Positions 41,428-64,000 of a stretch of DNA of 64,000 nt are shown piece by piece. The notes beneath the pieces are model-generated. The model was not told where the DNA came from, did no database searches, and saw nothing but the letters and a program-made list of their open reading frames with translations. The first letter of the stretch is position 1; each line of letters opens with the position of its first letter. The position numbers were made by a program, and so were the translations under genes. This DNA comes from Salinispora tropica CNB-440. GTDB taxonomy: Bacteria; Actinomycetota; Actinomycetes; Mycobacteriales; Micromonosporaceae. The DNA lies in assembly GCF_000016425.1 (NCBI RefSeq), contig NC_009380.1, positions 1,554,144-1,618,143 on the forward strand, given 5' to 3'.

Positions 41428-42179
41428 TCGGGCGGTTCCCGCAGGACGTAGCCGAAGCCCCGCACCGTGTGCAGCAACGGTGGATCCGAGATGTCGACCT
41501 TGCGACGGAGTTGGCTGACGAACTTCTCCACCACCCCCGGGTCGCCGGGGAAGTCGTACTGCCAGACCTGGGCGAGGATCTGCTGCTTGGACAGGACCCG
41601 GCCGGCGTTCTCCAACATATGTCGCAGTAACCGGAACTCGGTCGGCGACAGCTCGACCGGCGTGCCCGCCCGGGTGACGGTGTGTGCGTCCTCGTCGAGT
41701 TCCAGGTCGGCGACGGCGAGCCGGTTGGACGCGCTGGGCCGTCCGCCCAGGCGGCGTAGGACCGCGTTCACCCGGGCGACCACCTCCGCCACACTGAACG
41801 GCTTGGTGATGTAGTCGTCGCCGCCGAGGTTCAGCCCGGTGAGTCGGTCCTCCAGTGAGTCCTTCGCGGTCAGGAAGACCACCGCGAGCTCCGGGAGTCC
41901 GCGGCGCAGGTCGTGGACCAGGTCGAAGCCGGAGCCGTCGGGCAGCATCACGTCCACGATCGCCAACTCCGGAGCCAGTTCACCGGCGACCGTGAGCGCC
42001 TCGGCTCGGGAGCCGGCGGACCGGGCGTCGAACCCGGCGACCCGTAACGTGCGAAGCAGCAGCTCGGCCAGCGCCGGCTCGTCATCCACCACCAGCACCC
42101 GGGCCCGCCAGACCGAGCTGAGCTCGGCGCTCGCCCCCGGCCGCGGTTGCCGGGCGGAACGTCCTGTCGGTCCAGCCAT
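41424..42179 (-). CDS. OmpR-family response regulator
   Basis: A 251-aa regulator with an N-terminal receiver domain (acidic VDDE, phospho-acceptor Asp76 in IVDVMLPDGSG, Lys in ITKPFS) and a C-terminal winged helix (VELSPTEFRLLRHMLENAG, then KVDISDPPLLHTVRGFGYVL). I chose ATG 42179; the open frame extends 74 codons upstream, through the intergenic region. Translationally coupled to the kinase gene. Three TGCTGAA repeats occur in the upstream divergent promoter and may be its binding sites. Confidence 0.92.
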   Translation of the reverse strand: MAGPTGRSARQPRPGASAELSSVWRARVLVVDDEPALAELLLRTLRVAGFDARSAGSRAEALTVAGELAPELAIVDVMLPDGSGFDLVHDLRRGLPELAVVFLTAKDSLEDRLTGLNLGGDDYITKPFSVAEVVARVNAVLRRLGGRPSASNRLAVADLELDEDAHTVTRAGTPVELSPTEFRLLRHMLENAGRVLSKQQILAQVWQYDFPGDPGVVEKFVSQLRRKVDISDPPLLHTVRGFGYVLREPPE

Positions 42180-55899: not shown

Positions 55900-56379
55900 A
55901 TGACCGAGCTGTGGAACTGGAGAATTGACCAGGTGCGGCCGGCGGAGGTCTGGCCGGCGCTGGCCGAGGCGCTTGGCCGGGTGGTGATGCCGCTGGCCGT
56001 CGCCAACCCGGCACGCCTGCCGAGATACGCCGTGGTCTGCGACATCTGGCAGGCACCGGGAGAGTTCGCCACAGTCGTCGACTGTTACGGCGTGCCGGAC
56101 ACCCTCGCCGAACTGCCGAGCATCGCGACCCTGGCCCGTCTGCTGGACCGCAACTGCGTGCTGCGCGACGACACCCTCGACGAGACCCGACACCTACTGG
56201 TGGCTCCGGACGGGACGATCCGCCCGGTGCACTTCGACGTCCGGGAGGCCGACGACGGTGAGGTGCTCAGCGGTCAACGGCTCTGCACCGAAGCCACCCC
56301 GGGCTGCCGGGGCTGGTCCCGGTGTCAGCGCTCCCGCTGGGCCCCCGACTCGGTGCTACCCGCCCTCGCTGCCGCTTGA
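55900..56379 (+). CDS. Hypothetical protein, Cys-rich C terminus
   Basis: A 159-aa soluble protein I do not recognise. ATG 55900 has GAGGAGG directly upstream, and codon usage fits the chromosome. It contains a conserved-looking middle (YAVVCDIWQAPGEFATVVDCYGVPD) and a C-terminal cluster of three cysteines (LCTEATPGCRGWSRCQRS) that might bind metal. No membrane helix. It is the first plus-strand gene before the type VII-like locus, but a link to it is only positional. Confidence 0.6.
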   Translation: MTELWNWRIDQVRPAEVWPALAEALGRVVMPLAVANPARLPRYAVVCDIWQAPGEFATVVDCYGVPDTLAELPSIATLARLLDRNCVLRDDTLDETRHLLVAPDGTIRPVHFDVREADDGEVLSGQRLCTEATPGCRGWSRCQRSRWAPDSVLPALAAA

Positions 56380-56463
56380 CCTGCGTGGAGTGCGAAATGT
56401 TCGGGAACCGTTAGGGCCGCCGACAATCGACGTACGGTAGCCGGCACCGTACGATCAGCGTCC

Positions 56464-58662
56464 ATGATCGAAATGTCGGCGCAGTGGGCTGGTCAGGTCT
56501 TGGTGGTCGGTGCCGAGGCGGAGGTCGCTCGGGTCGCCGCACACGTCCGCCACCCTCCCACCGAATCCGGCCAGAACACCGTGCTGGTTGTCGGCGACGA
56601 CCTACGTGACTGGGAACAGCTCGCCCCGACGCTTACCCCGCATCTGTGGAGGTTGGGCGCTTCGGTGCACCTGGTGTCGGCCCCAGCGACGAACCCGCCG
56701 CCGGTTGCGTCCGCGCGTCGGCTCGGCGAGGAGCTGGGCATCGAGGTGATCGCCCCCGACGGGCCGCTTCTACCGGCCCGTGACGGCACCACATTCGTAC
56801 TCGGCCCCGCCGCGTCCTGGTGGAGGATCGTGGTGGGAGCCGCGGCGCAGCCGATCGGGCCGTACCACCCCATCCCCTGGTGGGCCGAGCCGTCGCCAAC
56901 CGCCGGCACCGGTTGGGTCGCCCTTCCGGCCGGTGGCTGGCTGCCCGGCGGAGAGCAGCCGGAAGCCGCGGACCCCGACGACCTCGTCCTCGCGGTCCCG
57001 CGTCATGACTCGCTGTTCACGATGGTGGTCGGTACGCCCGGTCAGCCCCCGGTGGCTCGGGAGACGCTACTGGCCACCGTGGCTGCCCTGCCCGCACCCG
57101 TGCGGGAGCGGCTCCTCGTCGTGCCCTACGGCCCCGGGCAGGCAGACGCCGCCCCCGCGCTGGCCGACACGTTCGGCGTCTGCGTCTACGGCGCCGACGG
57201 ACTGCCCGGCTACGGCCCGGAGGGCGAGATCGCGGTTCGTGGCGTTGGTGCCGAGGGCGGGGTGGGGCCGCGTCGACTCGTTCGGACCTGGGCTCACCCG
57301 CCGAACGGGCACCCCCACGTGGCGCAGTGGGCCGGTCTGGCGGAGCTACCCGAGAGCGCGCCGGGCGTGGTGAGTCTGGCGGAGAAGATCTCGGTCGAGG
57401 CGGTGCGGGCCGGGCTCTGGGTGCGGGAGGCTGACAGCGCACCGGGCGAACACACCCCGCGTCACCTGCCACCGGAACCGGACAACCTCGTCGTGCTGGT
57501 CGGCACACACGCGGCACCGCCAACCTCCCCGATGTTCGCGGAGGTTGATCGGCTACTCGGGCTGCTCACCGCGGAGCACCGGGAGCATCTGCGGGTCGTC
57601 GTGCCGACCGGCACCGACGGCCTGGCCCTGGAGATCGCCCGCACGACGGCCGCGACGTGGACCAGCCGAAGCGCGCTACTACTCGATCCGGATGGCGTGC
57701 TTTCGTCGGTCGCCTCGGCCCCAGCCGCCGAAACAGCGGAGGAAGCGCCGGTGCCGCCCGAGCAACCACCCGCATTGCCTGACGAGCCACTGGCTTCGCC
57801 CGGCGATGTGCCCGCTTCATCCGAGGAGTGGCTGGCGGAGACGACCGTCGACCCGGCGGCGGAGGCGCCTTTGCCGCCGGCCCGAGTCTGGCCAGACCAG
57901 CGCAGCACCGCAGCGCAACGCCATCGGCTGCGTGCGGCACTCGGGACGTACTACGACCTACACGCCCGGGTGGTGGCGCGACTGCTGGCGCAGCATCCGG
58001 GTCTGCGCGTGCTTCCCGCCGGGGACGAACCCGATGCGCTGATGACTGACCTGATCGCGGTACGGGCATTCCTCATGGGCGACCGGTCGTCCGTGGCGGC
58101 GGCACTGCGCTCGACGTCGGATGTGGGCGATCTGGCCTTCCTCGCCTGCCTGGCGTCCGGGCTCAGGCGGCTGCCCAGCTATCGCGGGGTGGTGTATTCC
58201 TCCGTCCCGACGCAGTACGCATCGCACGTCTACCCGGAGGGCCGGTCCTTCTGGGAACCGACCTTCCTTGAGGCATCCACGACTCGGGTTGCCGCGGGTG
58301 CCGAGATGACGGACCTCGTCGTGTGGTCCAGCAACGGTCGGCATGTCGGCGGCGTCGTTGGTGGGGGGGATACACACCGGGTGGTGTTCCCGGCCTGGTC
58401 CCGCTTCGTCGTCCTCGGCCATCGGCCTGCGGGGAGTGACCGCTGCGCTGCGGTCTTCCTCCGTGATGCGCCGACCGAGTCGGGGCAGGTCGATGCGGCG
58501 AGAAACCAACGCCTTCGCGAGCGACTTGAGGCGTTGACTGCGGCCGGTGGAACCGCGAGCTGTCAGGCTGCGACCGACCCCGGCTGGGCGGAGAGCGGTG
58601 AGCTGCCGGGTTGTGACCAGACGGGGCGACCGTATCAGTCGGGGAAGCCGTTACGTGGTTGA
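56464..58662 (+). CDS. Large protein with Rossmann-like repeats and degenerate ADP-ribosyltransferase-like C terminus
   Basis: A 732-aa protein without signal or membrane segments. Three segments share a pattern of a buried VVG strand, a helix and a second hydrophobic strand (about residues 39-75, 183-245 and 343-410), suggesting repeated alpha/beta units. A Pro/Glu/Ala linker (about 418-475) leads to a C-terminal domain resembling mono-ADP-ribosyltransferases: YRGVVYSSVP (Arg574), FLEASTTR (605-607, STS-like) and VVFPAWSRFVVLG. Where active enzymes have ExE, this has THR (637-639), so catalysis is doubtful. A TACGAT box ends eight bases before the ATG. Related proteins occur near type VII loci in this family (recalled, not searched). 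Confidence 0.55.
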   Translation: MIEMSAQWAGQVLVVGAEAEVARVAAHVRHPPTESGQNTVLVVGDDLRDWEQLAPTLTPHLWRLGASVHLVSAPATNPPPVASARRLGEELGIEVIAPDGPLLPARDGTTFVLGPAASWWRIVVGAAAQPIGPYHPIPWWAEPSPTAGTGWVALPAGGWLPGGEQPEAADPDDLVLAVPRHDSLFTMVVGTPGQPPVARETLLATVAALPAPVRERLLVVPYGPGQADAAPALADTFGVCVYGADGLPGYGPEGEIAVRGVGAEGGVGPRRLVRTWAHPPNGHPHVAQWAGLAELPESAPGVVSLAEKISVEAVRAGLWVREADSAPGEHTPRHLPPEPDNLVVLVGTHAAPPTSPMFAEVDRLLGLLTAEHREHLRVVVPTGTDGLALEIARTTAATWTSRSALLLDPDGVLSSVASAPAAETAEEAPVPPEQPPALPDEPLASPGDVPASSEEWLAETTVDPAAEAPLPPARVWPDQRSTAAQRHRLRAALGTYYDLHARVVARLLAQHPGLRVLPAGDEPDALMTDLIAVRAFLMGDRSSVAAALRSTSDVGDLAFLACLASGLRRLPSYRGVVYSSVPTQYASHVYPEGRSFWEPTFLEASTTRVAAGAEMTDLVVWSSNGRHVGGVVGGGDTHRVVFPAWSRFVVLGHRPAGSDRCAAVFLRDAPTESGQVDAARNQRLRERLEALTAAGGTASCQAATDPGWAESGELPGCDQTGRPYQSGKPLRG

Positions 58663-59700
58663 CCAAGCAGGTCGTGCGGTGTGTTTCGGGCTTCCCCGGA
58701 ACGTTAGCGCTCGCCGTCTGCATGCCGAGCACGGCACGGTCGCCGCATCGTCATGGGCTGTCACGCCCCACGACAAAACGACGTGGTCAACCGGGACGTC
58801 ACGCCCCGGAGGTCGCCGAATCAGTTGTGGGTCGTAGGCATCACCGGGTCCTGAGCCGGGAGGGCAGGGGTGTGCGCAGTCGCGCCGGACGCTCTTTCCT
58901 GCCTGCTTGTCGGCTGGTCCATCGACGTCACACCGGCGGCCACGCTGGTGACCAATGGTTTAGCATGACCTTGGTGTAAGCGGATCCCTTCGGAATCTGC
59001 CGAGTCGAGCGAGTGGCCAAGGCCTTTCAACGGCCCGCTCCGTGACCGCTGCCGCAGATCGGGCAACCAGTCAGTACCGTCTCGGCCGCTGTGGCTGGTA
59101 CCCGGGGACAAACCCTGACCATCAGCCTCGCACGCCACATTCATGATCTTGAAGCTTCTGTGACCACCCTGAACGCGAGGTGACCGCGGGCTGAGCGCGG
59201 CACTGGAGCAAGCGAATTCATCGCAGGTTTATCAAGTTGTGTCCCGAGCGTGGTTCCCATGCTTGTCGTATTTCCCATATCTTACATGTGTCCTGAATGG
59301 AAGGGTTGGTTGGAGTTGGTTACGCTGCGATATGTGGCTACCCTTGCCGCCGTTTGCCGTCAGTCCTTATGGCGTTCGTGGTCGACTTGTCGATAGAAAT
59401 CTACGCGCCGCGCGCCAGTGTCGGACTTCGTCAAGTTTGGCGTTGGGGCGCATGCCTGTCTCACGCCGAGGTGTCACCTTTCGGTACCGCGGTGACACCC
59501 GTTGCTAGCGAACTATTCCGCTAACTGGGACCTCCGATGAATCCTGTTCTGGCTGGGCGGCGCAGAACTGCGGCACTGGGGAATAATTGATTGGAGCTTC
59601 GAGAAGCGTCGGGCAAAAGGGGGATCCCGGTTGTGATGCACTGGGTGGTCACGTGAAAGACGGGTAGTGAAAGGATCGTCGAACGGAGGTTGCGGGAGCT
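58663..59700. other. About 1 kb of gene-poor, AT-richer sequence
   Basis: No convincing gene; open frames of 75-107 codons lack coding character and ribosome binding sites. An inverted repeat, GGTGTCACC-N12-GGTGACACC, is at 59470-59499 and may be a terminator or operator. Base composition drops visibly here compared with the sequence to the left, suggesting an acquired segment. No transposase or tRNA was recognised. Confidence 0.55.
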
Positions 59701-60165
59701 ATGTCGTACTACTGGCCAGGAGGGCTGGGAGAGGGAGGTAGTAGGCCACCGAAGCCTAATCCCTATGACGGCGATGGTGGTGCGAGTTTCGACCCGAGGG
59801 AGGTGCCAGACCACGAAATCGGATGGGATAGGAAAAAATATGCAGGCGAGGACCCCCCAGAGGGAAAATTTGTGGTGCATACGCCTGCTTTAGAGCATTT
59901 CGCGGACCAGGTGGAAAGGCTCCGAAAGCCGCTCACGGAAGCATTTGACGAATTGAACGCGTGCCTTCCGTTGGCCGCAGGCCGTTTTAAGATTGCCGAT
60001 CAAATTAGTGATGATGGAAATAGCCTTCGAGAAACCTACTTGAGAGGTATCGCGACTATGCGAGACGGACTGCAAGATATTGAGGACAGAGTGAGAGAGG
60101 ATGCGGAAATCTTTAAGGAGCTCGAAGAGGCCAACACCGGTGTCGTGACGGATGAGGCTCCGTGA
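59701..60165 (+). CDS. Type VII-associated helical protein
   Basis: A 154-aa protein: a Gly/Pro/Asp-rich N terminus (residues 1-55), then a helical region starting VVHTPALEHFADQVERLRKPL and ending REDAEIFKELEEANTG. The helical part resembles EspC/DUF2580-type and WXG100-like secretion targets that begin with a residue pattern and form a helical hairpin, but there is no WXG motif. GGGAG precedes the ATG. Codon use is A/T-rich at third positions compared with the chromosome. Assignment rests mainly on context. Confidence 0.5.
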   Translation: MSYYWPGGLGEGGSRPPKPNPYDGDGGASFDPREVPDHEIGWDRKKYAGEDPPEGKFVVHTPALEHFADQVERLRKPLTEAFDELNACLPLAAGRFKIADQISDDGNSLRETYLRGIATMRDGLQDIEDRVREDAEIFKELEEANTGVVTDEAP

Positions 60166-60809
60166 TAGTACATTGGCCTGACATTTACTCCTAGAGGGCC
60201 GCCTGCTAACGAGTCCACAACAATTTCCTAAACCATCCGTATTGGATGTTAGAGAATGACAGCGGGTTGGATGCGTTGTCGTCCACATTCGCCTCGGGCC
60301 GGCCGGCAACCCTCGGCGATAGAGAGATGATGCAGGTGTACACGTGATTGTGGGGTTGGACCCGCGTGCGCACGCGTTCGGTTTCGTGTTGTGGACCCGT
60401 CAACTGATATGGGGCTTGATCGCGCGTCTGGCCGATGGTATGACGCGTCGGCATGGAACTGCTCGGGTCCACCGGTCGGATGCCGGTGCTGACCATGATG
60501 CCGAAGCCACCCCAGACGCGCCACGGACCACACGATCTCATCACCACCGTGACCGGAGCTACTCGATTACGGAATGGCTCTGGCCGCCAACGAACAGTAA
60601 ACGTCTCAACGTTGCAGCTTCCTGGAGTGGCTTTGTCGCAGCTTTTTGGGAGTGGCTATTGAACATTGTGCCGGAACATGGTCTGGTATGTAGGTGGTGA
60701 GGAGCAGGGAGGCGAAGCCCCCTGTCGCCGAGTGCTGAGCCAGGGACTTCGCGTTGTGGAGTGAAGGCTTGCCACTGTATTCACCAGTTTTGACTCGCAT
60801 GGAGGAGGT
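60166..60809. other. 644 bases without a recognisable gene
   Basis: Open frames on both strands are short and lack start signals or family similarity that I can see. A frame at 60344 begins VIVGLDPRAHAF, which faintly resembles IS110 transposase starts, but the rest does not continue the family. Probably decayed sequence or regulatory DNA. Confidence 0.5.
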
Positions 60810-61112
60810 ATGGTGAGCACCAAAATCCAGGTAGATACCGATGAGATGGCTCGTGCAGGCGACCGCTTCGACGATGCTGGGGATTTTCACTCGAGAGAAA
60901 ACAAGAACTTTGCCATTGTTTTTGAGAGGCTACGCGGGGCCTGGGCTGGGGAAGCGGGTGTTAGCTTTCAGGGGAACGCAGCACAGTGGCTCGCTAACTA
61001 TACAGATGTGATCGATGCTCTCTATCAGATGCGAGAAACCCTGGGTGGATCTGAAAAGAGCTATCGTGAAACCGAATTGACAAACAGCAGTGGTGGCCTG
61101 GATTTGAGCTAG
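60810..61112 (+). CDS. WXG100-family type VII secretion target
   Basis: A 100-aa EsxA/EsxB-like protein. The first helix (DEMARAGDRFDDAG) leads to a turn with the WXG motif as LRGAWAGEAG, followed by helix two (QGNAAQWLANYTDVIDALYQM). GGAGGTATGG places a Shine-Dalgarno just before the ATG. Such proteins form helical hairpin dimers and are exported by ESX systems. The C-terminal tail (ETELTNSSGGLDLS) is short and polar. A second WXG100 gene follows after 77 bases. Confidence 0.8.
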   Translation: MVSTKIQVDTDEMARAGDRFDDAGDFHSRENKNFAIVFERLRGAWAGEAGVSFQGNAAQWLANYTDVIDALYQMRETLGGSEKSYRETELTNSSGGLDLS

Positions 61113-61189
61113 CATAACCGGGATCGAGGAGTCCACTACAAGCAATAAAGTCGTGATTAGCAACTTCGGACGTACTATCTGGAGAGATG

Positions 61190-61471
61190 ATGGCATCGTT
61201 CTCGATTGACATATCGGTTGCTGTGGACATCGAAGACCAGTTGCGAACGGCGCAGCGTAGAATCGCAAATGACCTGAATGAGTTGGAGGGGATCAAAATG
61301 GATGGGTGGGACGGTGAAGCCAAGGCAAACTATCTCCAATGTCAGGCAAAGTGGAGAGATGCGGCAGACAAAATGACCGCGAACCTAGAGCTGATGGCGA
61401 TGGCGCTGGGACGTGCAACTGACAATTATTCCAACGCTGAAAAATCGGTAGCCAGAAGTTGGGGAGGATAG
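61190..61471 (+). CDS. WXG100-family type VII secretion target, second of pair
   Basis: A 93-aa helical hairpin protein with WDG (KMDGWDGEAKANY) as its WXG motif and a C-terminal helix ending AEKSVARSWGG. I chose ATG 61190, since GGAG then sits five bases upstream; ATG 61187 is adjacent. With the preceding gene it could form an EsxA/EsxB-like heterodimer. Codon use is A/T-rich relative to the chromosome. Confidence 0.8.
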   Translation: MASFSIDISVAVDIEDQLRTAQRRIANDLNELEGIKMDGWDGEAKANYLQCQAKWRDAADKMTANLELMAMALGRATDNYSNAEKSVARSWGG

Positions 61472-61854
61472 TAGCCAACAGTTTGGCGATCGCAGCCGTG
61501 GTAACTGGAGTCGTAGCATAAGTCAATTTGTTTTAGCGAATGCTCCGAAGCCATACTTGGGGGCCAGCGATCAACCACGCTGATCACGGCGATCCCTAGC
61601 ATCCGTAGCTGCGCTTCTAGTCCATGAGTCGTGCCTCCCGGTACTCGCCTCTAACTCCTGCCGAAGTCGGCGATGCAGAAACTGCTCGGAAGGTCCGGCT
61701 TCTTGCAGGGAGCCGCCACTAACGGGGTGAAAGTGTCCTGATCTGGAGGCCATGTTCTCTTCCATAGAAGCGAATTCAATCTCGTGGCCGGTGGGGCCAG
61801 TGGATGAACCCGTCGCTGGTCTCACCGACGTGGCGATGTGAATGGGAGTCAGAC
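61472..61854. other. Intergenic region before the repeat-rich gene
   Basis: About 380 bases with no gene that I can support. The frame of the next gene opens at ATG 61804, but the better start is GTG 61855. Confidence 0.5.
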
Positions 61855-63723
61855 GTGGTTAAGGCGAAAGATCTTTCTGGCGATGAAGACGCCTGGATTT
61901 GGAAAGAAATCAAGGCAGCAGTCAACGGTGGGTCTGAGATCGCAGCCGGCGACGAAGACGCCAGAGACACAGCTCAAGGTGTTAGCAACCCTAGTACATT
62001 CTATGACCTGGCATCTGCTCTTGCTAAGGTAAAAGCTACACTCGTATATTGCCGTGATGTCATTAGTTTCAGTGCGGACGACATTGCGGGGGAAGAAAGT
62101 CAGTGGTTTAAGGGGGAGGCTGCTGCGTATTTTCATGCGCACATGATGGCTGTCGTAGACAGTTTCGATTCGTATATTGTCGGCCTAGAAGAGGACCTGG
62201 ATGCGAGACCGGTGCGGCATGATGTCATTGCGGAACTAACTCACGCGGGCAATGAACTCGGCAGGGCGCGCTCGTGGCTACAGGAAATAGACCACCACTA
62301 CGCCAGCGAAGCAAAACGGCTAGGTGCGGAGGTGATGGACAATGGCCTCATCCGGGTGTCCGACCGTCCCGATGTCGTAGAGCTGTTGAACCAGGATATG
62401 CGAAGGGTGTTCAAGGGGCTTAAAGAAACGTATGGGCTTGCGGTTAATAGCATAGATTCTAGCGAAATTGCCCCCATGCCACCGCTTCCTCCGCCTGAGA
62501 AAGCGCCCATTAGAGACCCTGGTGTCAGCGTTGACACAGAGCCAGTTGACTTGGGCATTGGTGGCGATTCGGTGCGCCCGCACGCGGCACCTTGGGGCGG
62601 TTCGGGGTCTGGTGGTGAGCCGGTGGAGTTTCCTGGCGGGTTGGGGTCTGGTGGTGAGCCGGTGGAGTTTCCTGGCGGGTTGGGGTCTGGTGGTGAGCCG
62701 GTGGAGTTTCCTGGCGGGTTGGGGCCTGGTGGTGAGTCGGTGGAGCTTCCTCATGGTTCTGAGGGTGAGGGCTTTTCGGATTCGAAATTCTCCCCGAGCG
62801 ATGGCTTGGGAGGCTCTGATTTCGGCATCGCCCCGGGCACGAACCTGGCTGGCGCTGACACGCTTTCCCAACCAAGTCCGTTCCTGGGAAGCCAGACCGG
62901 GCCAGGAGCTCTTGGACCCAACAACGGCACACAAAACCTCACCACCCCTACCGCTTCTTTCGCCCCTCACTCTGGCGGTGTAGGTGGTGGGGGTCCTATG
63001 CCGTTTGTGCCTGGTGCGCCGGGGGGGTCTCCTCGGTCGGGGGGTGGTTCTCGGTCGTCTGGTTCTGTTGGTAGGTCGTCTCCTGCTTCGTTTGTGCCGG
63101 GTCGTGGTTCGGGTGGTGGTGATCCACAGAAGTTGAGGAGGGGGCCGGTTCTTGGTGGTGGGGGTCCTATGCCGTTTGTGCCTGGTGCGCCGGGGGGGTC
63201 TCCTCGGTCGGGGGGTGGTTCTCGGTCGTCTGGTTCTGTTGGTAGGTCGTCTCCTGCTTCGTTTGTGCCGGGTCGTGGTTCGGGTGGTGGTGATCCACAG
63301 AAGTTGAGGAGGGGGCCGGTTCTTGGTGGTGGGGGTCCTATGCCGTTTGTGCCTGGTGCGCCGGGGGGGTCTCCTCGGTCGGGGGGTGGTTCTCGGTCGT
63401 CTGGTTCTGTTGGTAGGTCGTCTCCTGCCTCGTTTGTGCCGGGTCGCGGTTCGGGTGGTGGTGATTCGTTGAGGAGGACTGGCGATACTGGCGGCCAGCG
63501 AAGCTACTCGGCCGGGCCCGGATCGGCTAGTAGAGCCGAGGGCCCCAGCAAGCTGCGCAAGGCCGCTGGCAACGGCGGAGTCCCTCTTGTGGGCTCCGGT
63601 GCTCCGCCGGCTGCCGGAAAGGATGCCAAGCGGGAGCGAAAGACGTGGCTTCTCGAGGAAGATGATGTTTGGGGTGCACATCCTGAATCTCCTGCTGGAC
63701 CAATTGGACGCAAGGACCGCTAG
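61855..63723 (+). CDS. Repeat-rich type VII secretion substrate-like protein
   Basis: A 622-aa protein. Residues 1-215 are helical (VKAKDLSGDEDAWIWKEI, IAGEESQWFKGEAAAYFHAH with a WXG-like W-x-x-G turn), like the N termini of long actinobacterial ESX substrates. A Pro/Gly/Ser-rich region follows with about four 13-residue repeats (GSGGEPVEFPGGL) and nearly three 57-residue repeats (GPMPFVPGAPGGSPRSGGGS...). The acidic C terminus KTWLLEEDDVWGAHP is shared by such substrates in Micromonosporaceae. I chose GTG 61855 (GGGAG six bases upstream); ATG 61804 would add 17 residues. Probably exported, EspB- or PPE-like in role. Confidence 0.65.
   Translation: MVKAKDLSGDEDAWIWKEIKAAVNGGSEIAAGDEDARDTAQGVSNPSTFYDLASALAKVKATLVYCRDVISFSADDIAGEESQWFKGEAAAYFHAHMMAVVDSFDSYIVGLEEDLDARPVRHDVIAELTHAGNELGRARSWLQEIDHHYASEAKRLGAEVMDNGLIRVSDRPDVVELLNQDMRRVFKGLKETYGLAVNSIDSSEIAPMPPLPPPEKAPIRDPGVSVDTEPVDLGIGGDSVRPHAAPWGGSGSGGEPVEFPGGLGSGGEPVEFPGGLGSGGEPVEFPGGLGPGGESVELPHGSEGEGFSDSKFSPSDGLGGSDFGIAPGTNLAGADTLSQPSPFLGSQTGPGALGPNNGTQNLTTPTASFAPHSGGVGGGGPMPFVPGAPGGSPRSGGGSRSSGSVGRSSPASFVPGRGSGGGDPQKLRRGPVLGGGGPMPFVPGAPGGSPRSGGGSRSSGSVGRSSPASFVPGRGSGGGDPQKLRRGPVLGGGGPMPFVPGAPGGSPRSGGGSRSSGSVGRSSPASFVPGRGSGGGDSLRRTGDTGGQRSYSAGPGSASRAEGPSKLRKAAGNGGVPLVGSGAPPAAGKDAKRERKTWLLEEDDVWGAHPESPAGPIGRKDR
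62604..62759 (+). repeat. 39-bp tandem repeat, about four copies
   Basis: Copies start at 62604, 62643, 62682 and 62721. The first three are almost identical; the fourth has diverged. In frame, each encodes a 13-residue unit with GGEPVEFPGG. Confidence 0.9.
62983..63465 (+). repeat. 171-bp tandem repeat, about 2.8 copies
   Basis: Copies begin at 62983, 63154 and 63325 with near-identical DNA, only a few silent differences in the third copy. In frame, each encodes 57 residues rich in Gly, Ser, Arg and Pro. The DNA identity implies recent duplication or gene conversion. Confidence 0.92.
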
Positions 63724-63772
63724 AATGTGCCGCATTCTACTTTTGGTCGGTAGATGTGCATGAGAGGGATCG

Positions 63773-64000
63773 ATGCTGACGCCTTATGATGCGGAGCTAA
63801 GTCAACTCAGGGCGCGATACCGTGCGCAGCGGACAGCATTGGGTGAGATGCAACGTGCGTTAGCCGAACTTTCGGCAACAGTAATCGGTGTACAGCGGTG
63901 TGTTCAGGTTACCGTCGATGCCTACGGACAGCTCGTTGAATTGGGATTTCCTACCGATGCATACCGGCAGATGGCGCCGCAAGAACTTGCCACTGCGGTT
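63773..64000 (+). CDS. YbaB/EbfC-family protein (truncated by window end)
   Basis: The first 76 codons of a protein starting MLTPYDAELSQLRARYRAQ, with an N-terminal helix, then VQVTVDAYGQLVELGFPTDAYRQMAP, the typical YbaB/EbfC strand-turn-helix. GAGAGG precedes the ATG. YbaB-like proteins (for example EspL) are regular members of ESX loci, where they help effector stability or regulation. The 3' end lies outside the window. Confidence 0.7.
   Translation, partial: MLTPYDAELSQLRARYRAQRTALGEMQRALAELSATVIGVQRCVQVTVDAYGQLVELGFPTDAYRQMAPQELATAV

What the first reader, a model, noticed from the sequence alone, without database searches (positions are those of the whole stretch)
55900..64000. Possible type VII (ESX-like) secretion substrate locus with unusual partners
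Within 8 kb on one strand lie two WXG100 genes, a further helical target-like gene, a repeat-rich 622-aa substrate-like protein, a YbaB-like gene and a 732-aa protein with an ART-like domain. No secretion machinery gene is in the window. The AT-richer, gene-sparse sequence after 58.7 kb suggests acquisition. The gene combination is uncommon and could be a self-contained effector system.
Basis: partly seen in the sequence, partly recalled or inferred. Interest (0 to 1): 0.75.

Follow-up and report, generated by a model that had tools for sequence, protein, structure and literature searches.

The report
Type VII secretion locus, swapped cargo
This stretch holds the cargo genes of a complete bacterial type VII secretion locus whose export machinery lies just past the edge of the window, and the cargo set, which runs on into a giant protein predicted to be exported, differs so sharply from its machinery that it was likely swapped in as one block.

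Summary
In detail: two WXG100 genes, a helical gene, a 622-aa repeat protein, a YbaB-like gene and a 732-aa protein with an ART fold lie on one strand. The "missing machinery" is a window-edge artefact: past the edge come an EspC-like gene, a 3,437-aa giant with a WXG100_2 head, then mycosin, EccC, EccD and EccB, 12-20 kb out, an ESX-4-type locus. Print already lists two ESX-4 clusters for Salinispora tropica CNB-440, most likely this genome. It is not a self-contained effector system. New here: (1) the cargo block (58.7-74.9 kb) is a distinct allele: most cargo is 31-42% identical to its relatives against 67-79% for machinery, GC3 0.53-0.63 against 0.76-0.84; cassette exchange is likely. (2) YbaB beside a WXG100_2 giant recurs in Micromonosporaceae (37 of 64 giants), suggesting a chaperone as proposed for EspH/EspL. 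(3) The ART-like domain lacks the catalytic Arg-plus-Glu pair in 20 of 20 family members compared; its nearest fold is XopAI, a peptide binder. (4) Five of six sister genomes keep scars at the site, so the locus was lost repeatedly rather than newly gained. Export and toxicity are inferred, not shown.

The parts
56464..58662 (+). 732-aa protein: N-terminal alpha/beta repeats plus C-terminal ART-fold domain (about 481-674) lacking the catalytic Arg-plus-Glu pair across the family; ESX-linked, predicted accessory/adaptor (function inferred)
   Evidence: GC3 0.80
59701..60165 (+). 154-aa cargo-block gene, no significant Pfam family; relatives (32-34% identity) in two related ESX loci, there placed after the WXG genes instead of before them
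60810..61112 (+). WXG100 protein A (WAG; C-terminal YRETE)
61187..61471 (+). WXG100 protein B (WDG; C-terminal YSNAE)
61855..63723 (+). 622-aa substrate-like protein: conserved N-terminal domain (about aa 1-200), Gly/Pro/Ser-rich repeats, conserved C-terminal tail; GTG start fits the alignment with relatives
62596..62751 (+). 39-bp tandem repeat, 4.0 copies, in the 622-aa gene
62983..63465 (+). 171-bp tandem repeat, 2.8 copies, 99% matches, in the 622-aa gene
63773..64000 (+). YbaB-like gene (164 aa; continues to window-equivalent 64267): predicted ESX chaperone. Beyond the window (window-equivalent coordinates): EspC/WXG-like 64236-64631; giant 3,437 aa 64628-74941 (WXG100_2 head, HExxHxxGxxD motif, 1.5-kaa body); u383 75047-76198; mycosin 76195-77472; EccC 77482-81426; EccD 81423-82841; EccB 82848-84251; VHL-domain gene 84273-85379 (-)

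Best explanation
This is the cargo half of a complete ESX-4-type type VII secretion locus, whose mycosin, EccC, EccD and EccB genes lie 12-20 kb past the window edge, and its cargo block was likely exchanged as one cassette beside a longer-resident machine. Shown: gene content, order, divergence and composition. Inferred: the WXG100 pair and the EspC-like/giant pair are exported as folded helical pairs; the YbaB-like protein acts as their dedicated chaperone (by analogy with mycobacterial EspH and EspL); EccC's third ATPase domain recognises the cargo; the 3,437-aa giant, with a WXG100_2 export head, low-complexity spacers, a metzincin-like protease motif and a 1.5-kaa lineage-specific body, acts outside the cell, probably against neighbours. 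The 732-aa protein, found beside many ESX loci, would serve as a peptide-binding adaptor through its inactive ART-fold domain rather than as an ADP-ribosylating toxin.
For: Machinery: mycosin TIGR03921 4.2e-109, EccC with three FtsK stretches, EccD 4.2e-85, EccB 1.7e-113. Giant head PF25547 1.4e-17. Nearly the same gene set and order at other chromosomal places in G126 (no WXG A found; 732-aa gene elsewhere) and, with breaks, in G251. Cassette: cargo identity own-G126/G251 31-42% for the helical gene, WXG A (G251 only), WXG B, 622-aa, EspC-like (G126 only) and giant body (YbaB 63%, giant head and protease domain 54-55%, G126 only), against 67-79% for u383 and machinery; the same helical, WXG-B, 622-aa and body genes are 68-91% identical between G126 and G251, where the helical gene also sits on the other side of the WXG genes. 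GC3: seven cargo genes 0.53-0.63, u383 and machinery 0.76-0.84; 53 background ORFs (cargo left out, machinery included) 0.86 +/- 0.06, lowest 0.65. EccC changes special to this genome peak at residues 1103-1202, in ATPase 3 (29 in 100 sites against a mean of 14.5; 17 of 2000 shuffles). Chaperone: YbaB within 1.5 kb of 37 of 64 giants; EspH/EspL passages. ART domain: 0 of 20 with both Arg and Glu; nearest fold XopAI, which is unsuited to bind NAD+ and captures an Arg peptide (PMC6829252 abstract).
Against: Nothing shows expression, export or toxicity. Cassette exchange is not separated from very fast divergence: YbaB (63%) and the giant head (55%) are only moderately more divergent than the machinery, and no donor was found (giant body: 3 of 160 genus genomes and 1 of 121 family genomes, this one included). 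The EccC signal weakens when sites that vary between G126 and G251 are the control (one-sided Fisher p 0.07 for the window, 0.02 for 1104 to the end; window chosen after the fact). The protease domain rests on one motif and weak matches, all below Pfam cut-offs (E 0.0009-0.012), and the paralogous giant has no HExxH. The giant ends in low-complexity sequence and no known toxin domain was found in it. The EspL paper looked for direct binding of EspL to EspE/F/H and did not detect it (passage), so the chaperone analogy is indirect. 32 of 63 ART732-like loci are not within 40 kb of EccB (14 of them on contigs without one), and 27 of 64 giants have no listed YbaB within 1.5 kb.
Confidence: 0.75

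Rival explanations
1. The cargo genes diverged fast in place (arms-race evolution) and drifted to lower GC; no cassette was exchanged.
For: YbaB 63% and giant head 55% are close to the machinery range; no donor found; cargo of secretion systems is generally fast-evolving (general knowledge).
Against: WXG-B is 91% identical between G126 and G251, more than EccB (80%), yet only 33-34% identical to this genome's copy while EccB is 71-72%; all seven cargo genes have GC3 0.53-0.63, below each of 53 background ORFs; the helical gene has changed sides relative to the WXG genes.
Confidence: 0.35
2. The entire locus, machinery included, is a recently inserted genomic island between the glutamate ABC transporter genes and miaB.
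For: Six sister genomes (miaB 98% identical) have no EccB match at E<=1e-75 and no locus at this site, and G126 lacks it at this site; the gluB-miaB gap is about 30.8 kb here and 2.8-2.9 kb in four sisters.
Against: Two sisters (G181, G142) keep an eccB 3'-end remnant at the junction (local scores 41 and 43 against shuffle maxima 22 and 26), three keep remnants of the 732-aa gene (G186, G157, G190) and G126 keeps a shortened 732-aa gene next to the VHL-domain gene: loss scars. One sister (G268) shows none. Machinery GC3 (0.76-0.84) is within the background range.
Confidence: 0.2
3. A self-contained effector system without its own secretion machinery.
For: None of the machinery is inside the 64-kb window.
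Against: Machinery directly downstream on the same strand; conserved with the cargo in G126 and G251.
Confidence: 0.02
4. The 732-aa protein is itself an exported, active ADP-ribosyltransferase toxin.
Against: The position of the catalytic Glu is Arg here; Arg at 574 in 6 of 20 and Glu at 639 in 3 of 20 family members, both in 0 of 20. No export signal was identified.
Confidence: 0.1
5. The giant is a structural or developmental surface protein (spacer-rich fibre) rather than a toxin.
For: Long low-complexity spacers, no recognised toxin domain, low-complexity C-terminus.
Against: The paralogous giant at 548 kb carries deaminase, glutamine-amidase and calpain-type domains; 7 of 11 database relatives of its head carry further Pfam domains, among them ART (PF03496, three) and glutamine deamidase (PF15644, three); metzincin motif conserved in G126 and G107.
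Confidence: 0.3

Closest known systems
ESX-4 gene clusters of non-mycolate actinobacteria (PMC4791881; passages read)
   Same: EccB, EccC, EccD, MycP and a WXG100 pair; the paper's table lists two ESX-4 clusters in Salinispora tropica CNB-440, and this genome has two EccB genes
   Different: The passages I read do not describe the cargo block, the giant, the YbaB gene or the 732-aa protein
YbaB-like chaperones EspH and EspL of mycobacterial ESX-1 (PMC6107294, PMC6319747; passages read)
   Same: YbaB-like protein encoded beside ESX substrates
   Different: Here it precedes an EspC-like gene and a WXG100_2 giant in an ESX-4-type locus; chaperone activity untested
WXG100_2 (PF25547) giant proteins and WXG polymorphic toxins (PMC3482391; passages read)
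   Same: N-terminal export-type domain on a very long multi-domain protein; the paralogue and several database relatives carry toxin domains
   Different: This giant has no recognised C-terminal toxin; among 160 genus genomes its 1.5-kaa body is found only here, in G126 and in G251
XopAI (PDB 6k94; PMC6829252 abstract read)
   Different: Type III plant effector; no ESX context; here fused to N-terminal alpha/beta repeats
Staphylococcus aureus ess locus with EssC variants (PMC5994694; passages read)
   Same: Cargo genes vary as a block beside constant machinery, and the C-terminal ATPase part of the motor varies with them
   Different: Firmicute T7SSb; EssC falls into distinct variants, while EccC here shows only a modest local excess of changes

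Membership tests
ESX-4-type T7SS | EccB, EccC (three ATPase domains), EccD and mycosin encoded together | tested here: met
ESX-4-type T7SS | Paired WXG100 genes in the locus | tested here: met
ESX-4-type T7SS | No EccA, EccE or EspG in the cluster | tested here: met
   no Pfam match to them among the locus genes scanned; u383 and the 154-aa gene match nothing significant; the rest of the genome was not searched for them
ESX-4-type T7SS | Export of the WXG pair that depends on EccC | not testable with these tools
   needs secretome of a deletion strain
WXG100 | About 100 aa, WxG in mid-protein, Pfam match over cut-off | tested here: met
   60810-61112 and 61187-61471
YbaB/EbfC (EspL/EspH-like chaperone) | YbaB-family domain over cut-off beside ESX substrates | tested here: met
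YbaB/EbfC (EspL/EspH-like chaperone) | Stabilises ESX substrates | not testable with these tools
   analogy only
Active R-S-E mono-ADP-ribosyltransferase | ART fold | tested here: met
Active R-S-E mono-ADP-ribosyltransferase | Catalytic Arg and Glu conserved | tested here: not met
   0 of 20 have both; this copy has Arg574 but Arg at the Glu position
Polymorphic toxin (T7SS giant) | N-terminal export-type domain | tested here: met
   PF25547 1.4e-17
Polymorphic toxin (T7SS giant) | Recognised toxin domain | tested here: inconclusive
   HExxHxxGxxD only, weak M6/M7 and PDB matches
Autoprocessing cysteine protease (CPD) fold, N-terminal part of the 732-aa protein | Fold match well above background | tested here: inconclusive
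Autoprocessing cysteine protease (CPD) fold, N-terminal part of the 732-aa protein | Conserved catalytic Cys and His | tested here: not met
   in residues 1-300 no column has Cys in more than 7 of 30 rows; no Pfam match at E<=1 for ten relatives

The most novel reading that the evidence does not exclude
Actinobacterial ESX-4 loci are modular launchers: a fixed machine with a swappable cargo cassette (WXG pair, 622-aa substrate, YbaB chaperone, EspC-like partner and a giant effector of thousands of residues), with the motor's third ATPase domain co-adapting to each cassette, and with a new family of pseudo-enzyme adaptors built from an NAD-incompetent, peptide-binding ART fold behind protease-like repeats that would hand the giant to the machine.
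Probability: 0.25. Interest if true: 0.75.

Novelty: new variant of a known kind. Interest (0 to 1): 0.5.

Why it matters
What ESX-4 exports outside mycobacteria is largely open; PMC4791881 (passage) says the function of ESX-4 has yet to be determined. Here is a complete locus, most likely in a cultivable marine actinomycete, with a defined cargo block, a candidate chaperone and partner for a giant effector, and natural cassette divergence against more constant machinery. That makes cargo-machine specificity in actinobacterial ESX testable, as EssC variants did for S. aureus. The pseudo-ART protein family, linked to ESX in many genomes of this bacterial family, would be an unrecognised accessory part.

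Tried and rejected
A tRNA-borne integration was looked for: the only tRNA in the window is at 42012-42091, far from the locus, and none lies in the next 30 kb downstream (L006, L007). A protein database search with the giant body gave nothing at E<=0.001 among the 2277 candidates scored, although G126 and G251 hold it, so that search may have been insensitive. Internal repeats in the giant body: only weak. PADLOC defence families for six locus proteins: none at E<=0.01. Fold of the N-terminal 415 residues of the 732-aa protein: no Foldseek match at E<=0.001; the CPD-like rows are a lead only. PDB sequence profile of the 622-aa N-terminal domain: only TolC entries at E 0.07 or worse. The EspC-like protein also matches Mce4_CUP1 (3.6e-5, below cut-off); taken as a helical look-alike. 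The gene upstream at about 55.9-56.38 kb is kept in the flanks of the six sisters, G126 and G251, so it is not part of the ESX block. Ten searches of the open-access library listed no paper that I recognised as describing this cargo block. Counts: searches used 29 genomes (this one, G126, G251 and 26 of the 43 with a 732-aa relative), not a random sample; the listing was cut off, 4 of the 64 giants are below the PF25547 cut-off, and for G126 and G251 only their one matching EccB was entered, so the proximity counts are lower bounds. One search used every row except this genome's own, and every EccB row except second fragments of split genes. In one search relatives at or under 30 bits, rows not covering the domain and duplicates were dropped, leaving 20 rows with this one. 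One of the 53 background ORFs is probably an antisense artefact (the lowest, GC3 0.65).
Full report
1. Observation. The window is positions 1554144-1618143 of a single 5,183,331-base contig. On the + strand lie a 732-aa ORF (56464-58662), a 154-aa ORF (59701-60165), two WXG100 genes (60810-61112, 61187-61471), a 622-aa repeat-rich ORF (61855-63723) and the start of a YbaB-like gene at 63773. GC falls to 0.54-0.63 in the 2-kb bins after 58 kb (finer).

2. Past the window edge. The YbaB gene (PF02575 3.9e-8) is followed by a 131-aa EspC/WXG-like protein (EspC 4.9e-4, WXG100 3e-4 and Mce4_CUP1 3.6e-5, all below cut-off), a 3,437-aa ORF with a WXG100_2 head (1.4e-17), a 383-aa protein without a family, a mycosin (4.2e-109), EccC, EccD (4.2e-85) and EccB (1.7e-113), and then housekeeping genes including miaB (these last identities by reading the translations). 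In window-equivalent numbers the machinery spans 76195-84251. The genome holds two EccB genes; the other ESX locus, at 537-559 kb, also has a YbaB gene, a small WG-motif gene (by reading) and a 3,754-aa giant with YwqJ-deaminase, glutamine-amidase and calpain domains. PMC4791881 tabulates two ESX-4 clusters for Salinispora tropica CNB-440 (passages), so the machinery itself is not new.

3. Distribution. Among 160 genomes of the genus, 14 including this one have an EccB match at E<=1e-75; apart from this genome only G126 and G251 reach 72-73%, the other 11 are at or below 44%. Both carry nearly the same gene set and order, elsewhere in the chromosome. Differences: in both the helical gene lies after the WXG genes rather than before them; in G126 no WXG A was found and the 732-aa gene is not at that locus; in G251 the cargo is interrupted by what look like transposase ORFs, and YbaB, the EspC-like gene and the giant's head and protease domain were not found there. 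In the family sample, 117 of 121 genomes have EccB and 44 of 121, this one included, a relative of the 732-aa protein. Since EccB is nearly universal, distance is the useful measure: in the 43 other genomes, 31 of 63 such loci (25 genomes) lie within 40 kb of an EccB; of the other 32, 14 are on contigs without one.

4. History at the site. The locus lies between what reads as a glutamate ABC transporter and miaB. In four sisters the gluB-miaB gap is 2.8-2.9 kb, here about 30.8 kb. Six sisters (miaB 98%) lack the locus there, but G181 and G142 keep an eccB 3'-end remnant at the junction (local scores 41 and 43 against maxima of 22 and 26 in 500 shuffles; the G142 remnant is as close to G126's eccB as to this one), G186 and G157 keep the 5' end of the 732-aa gene, G190 keeps both its ends plus the VHL-domain gene, and G268 shows none; G126 (miaB 95%) keeps a shortened version of the 732-aa gene next to the VHL-domain gene. 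Repeated loss of an older locus fits better than a fresh insertion.

5. Cargo and machinery differ. Between this genome and G126/G251 the machinery and u383 are 67-79% identical; the helical gene, WXG A, WXG B, 622-aa, EspC-like and giant body are 31-42%, YbaB 63%, giant head and protease domain 54-55% (WXG A compared with G251 only; YbaB, EspC-like, head and protease domain with G126 only). Between G126 and G251 machinery is 78-89% and the four comparable cargo pieces 68-91%. All seven cargo genes have GC3 0.53-0.63, u383 and machinery 0.76-0.84, the 732-aa gene 0.80; 53 background ORFs average 0.86 (sd 0.06, lowest 0.65). The simplest reading is that the block from about 58.7 to 74.9 kb was exchanged as a cassette. 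EccC residues changed only here peak at 1103-1202, in the third ATPase domain (P-loop at 1108): 29 in 100 sites, reached in 17 of 2000 shuffles. Against sites that vary between G126 and G251 the excess is p 0.07 (window) or 0.02 (1104 to end), with the window chosen after looking. In S. aureus the essC type co-varies with adjacent 3' cargo genes and determines substrate (PMC5994694, passages), so this is a lead and not proof.

6. How it likely works. In 29 genomes (26 of them picked because they hold a 732-aa relative) there are 64 WXG100_2 open frames of 2,000 codons or more, 4 of them below the family cut-off, the longest 14,755; 37 have YbaB within 1.5 kb, 45 an EccB within 40 kb, 32 both (lower bounds). 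In mycobacteria EspH is YbaB-like and proposed as a dedicated chaperone of ESX-1 substrates, and EspL, with a predicted YbaB-type domain, stabilises EspE/F/H, although direct binding to them was not detected (PMC6107294, PMC6319747, passages). I infer that the YbaB-like protein here is a chaperone for the EspC-like/giant pair, that the giant's head pairs with the EspC-like protein and is read by EccC, and that the WXG pair is exported alongside. The giant has one HExxHxxGxxD motif, conserved in G126 and G107, with weak matches to M6/M7 proteases, long low-complexity spacers, and a 1,551-aa body found in 3 of 160 genus genomes and in none of the 120 other family genomes sampled. That it harms neighbours is inference from its paralogue and from database relatives of its head (11 proteins, 7 with further Pfam domains, among them ART and glutamine deamidase).

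8. Verdict. A real and complete ESX-4-type locus, ordinary in its machinery and already counted in print, but with a divergent cargo block, a recurrent YbaB-giant arrangement and an ESX-linked pseudo-ART family that are worth testing.

Noticed in passing
G000:C1:537101-559299 (L008, L009, L122): Second ESX locus of the same genome with a 3,754-aa giant that carries YwqJ-deaminase, glutamine-amidase (two stretches) and calpain-type domains on one chain.
   Followed up: partly
G047:C1:1227910, G079:C1:5708061, G036:C1:1096535: WXG100_2 open frames of 14,755, 14,668 and 13,832 codons; two of the three lie within 15 kb of an EccB gene.
   Followed up: no
window-equivalent 84273-85379 (L007:10417-11523, minus strand): A 368-aa protein with a C-terminal VHL beta domain (PF01847, 4.7e-8) directly after eccB; its sequence lies next to the 732-aa gene or its remnant in G126 and G190.
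   Followed up: partly
window-equivalent 85453-85603: Sister genomes carry a monooxygenase-like gene (from reading the sequence) before miaB of which only the 3' part, from about 85453 on, still matches here.
   Followed up: no
L110-L112 (G251:C1:3963935-3991666): In G251 the cargo region is interrupted by repeated transposase-like ORFs (by reading); no WXG100_2 match was found in that genome and neither of its two YbaB genes is at the locus.
   Followed up: no
window 55906-56379: A 157-aa ORF upstream of the 732-aa gene, conserved in the flanks of six sisters, G126 and G251, without a significant Pfam family (CHAT at E 0.19).
   Followed up: no
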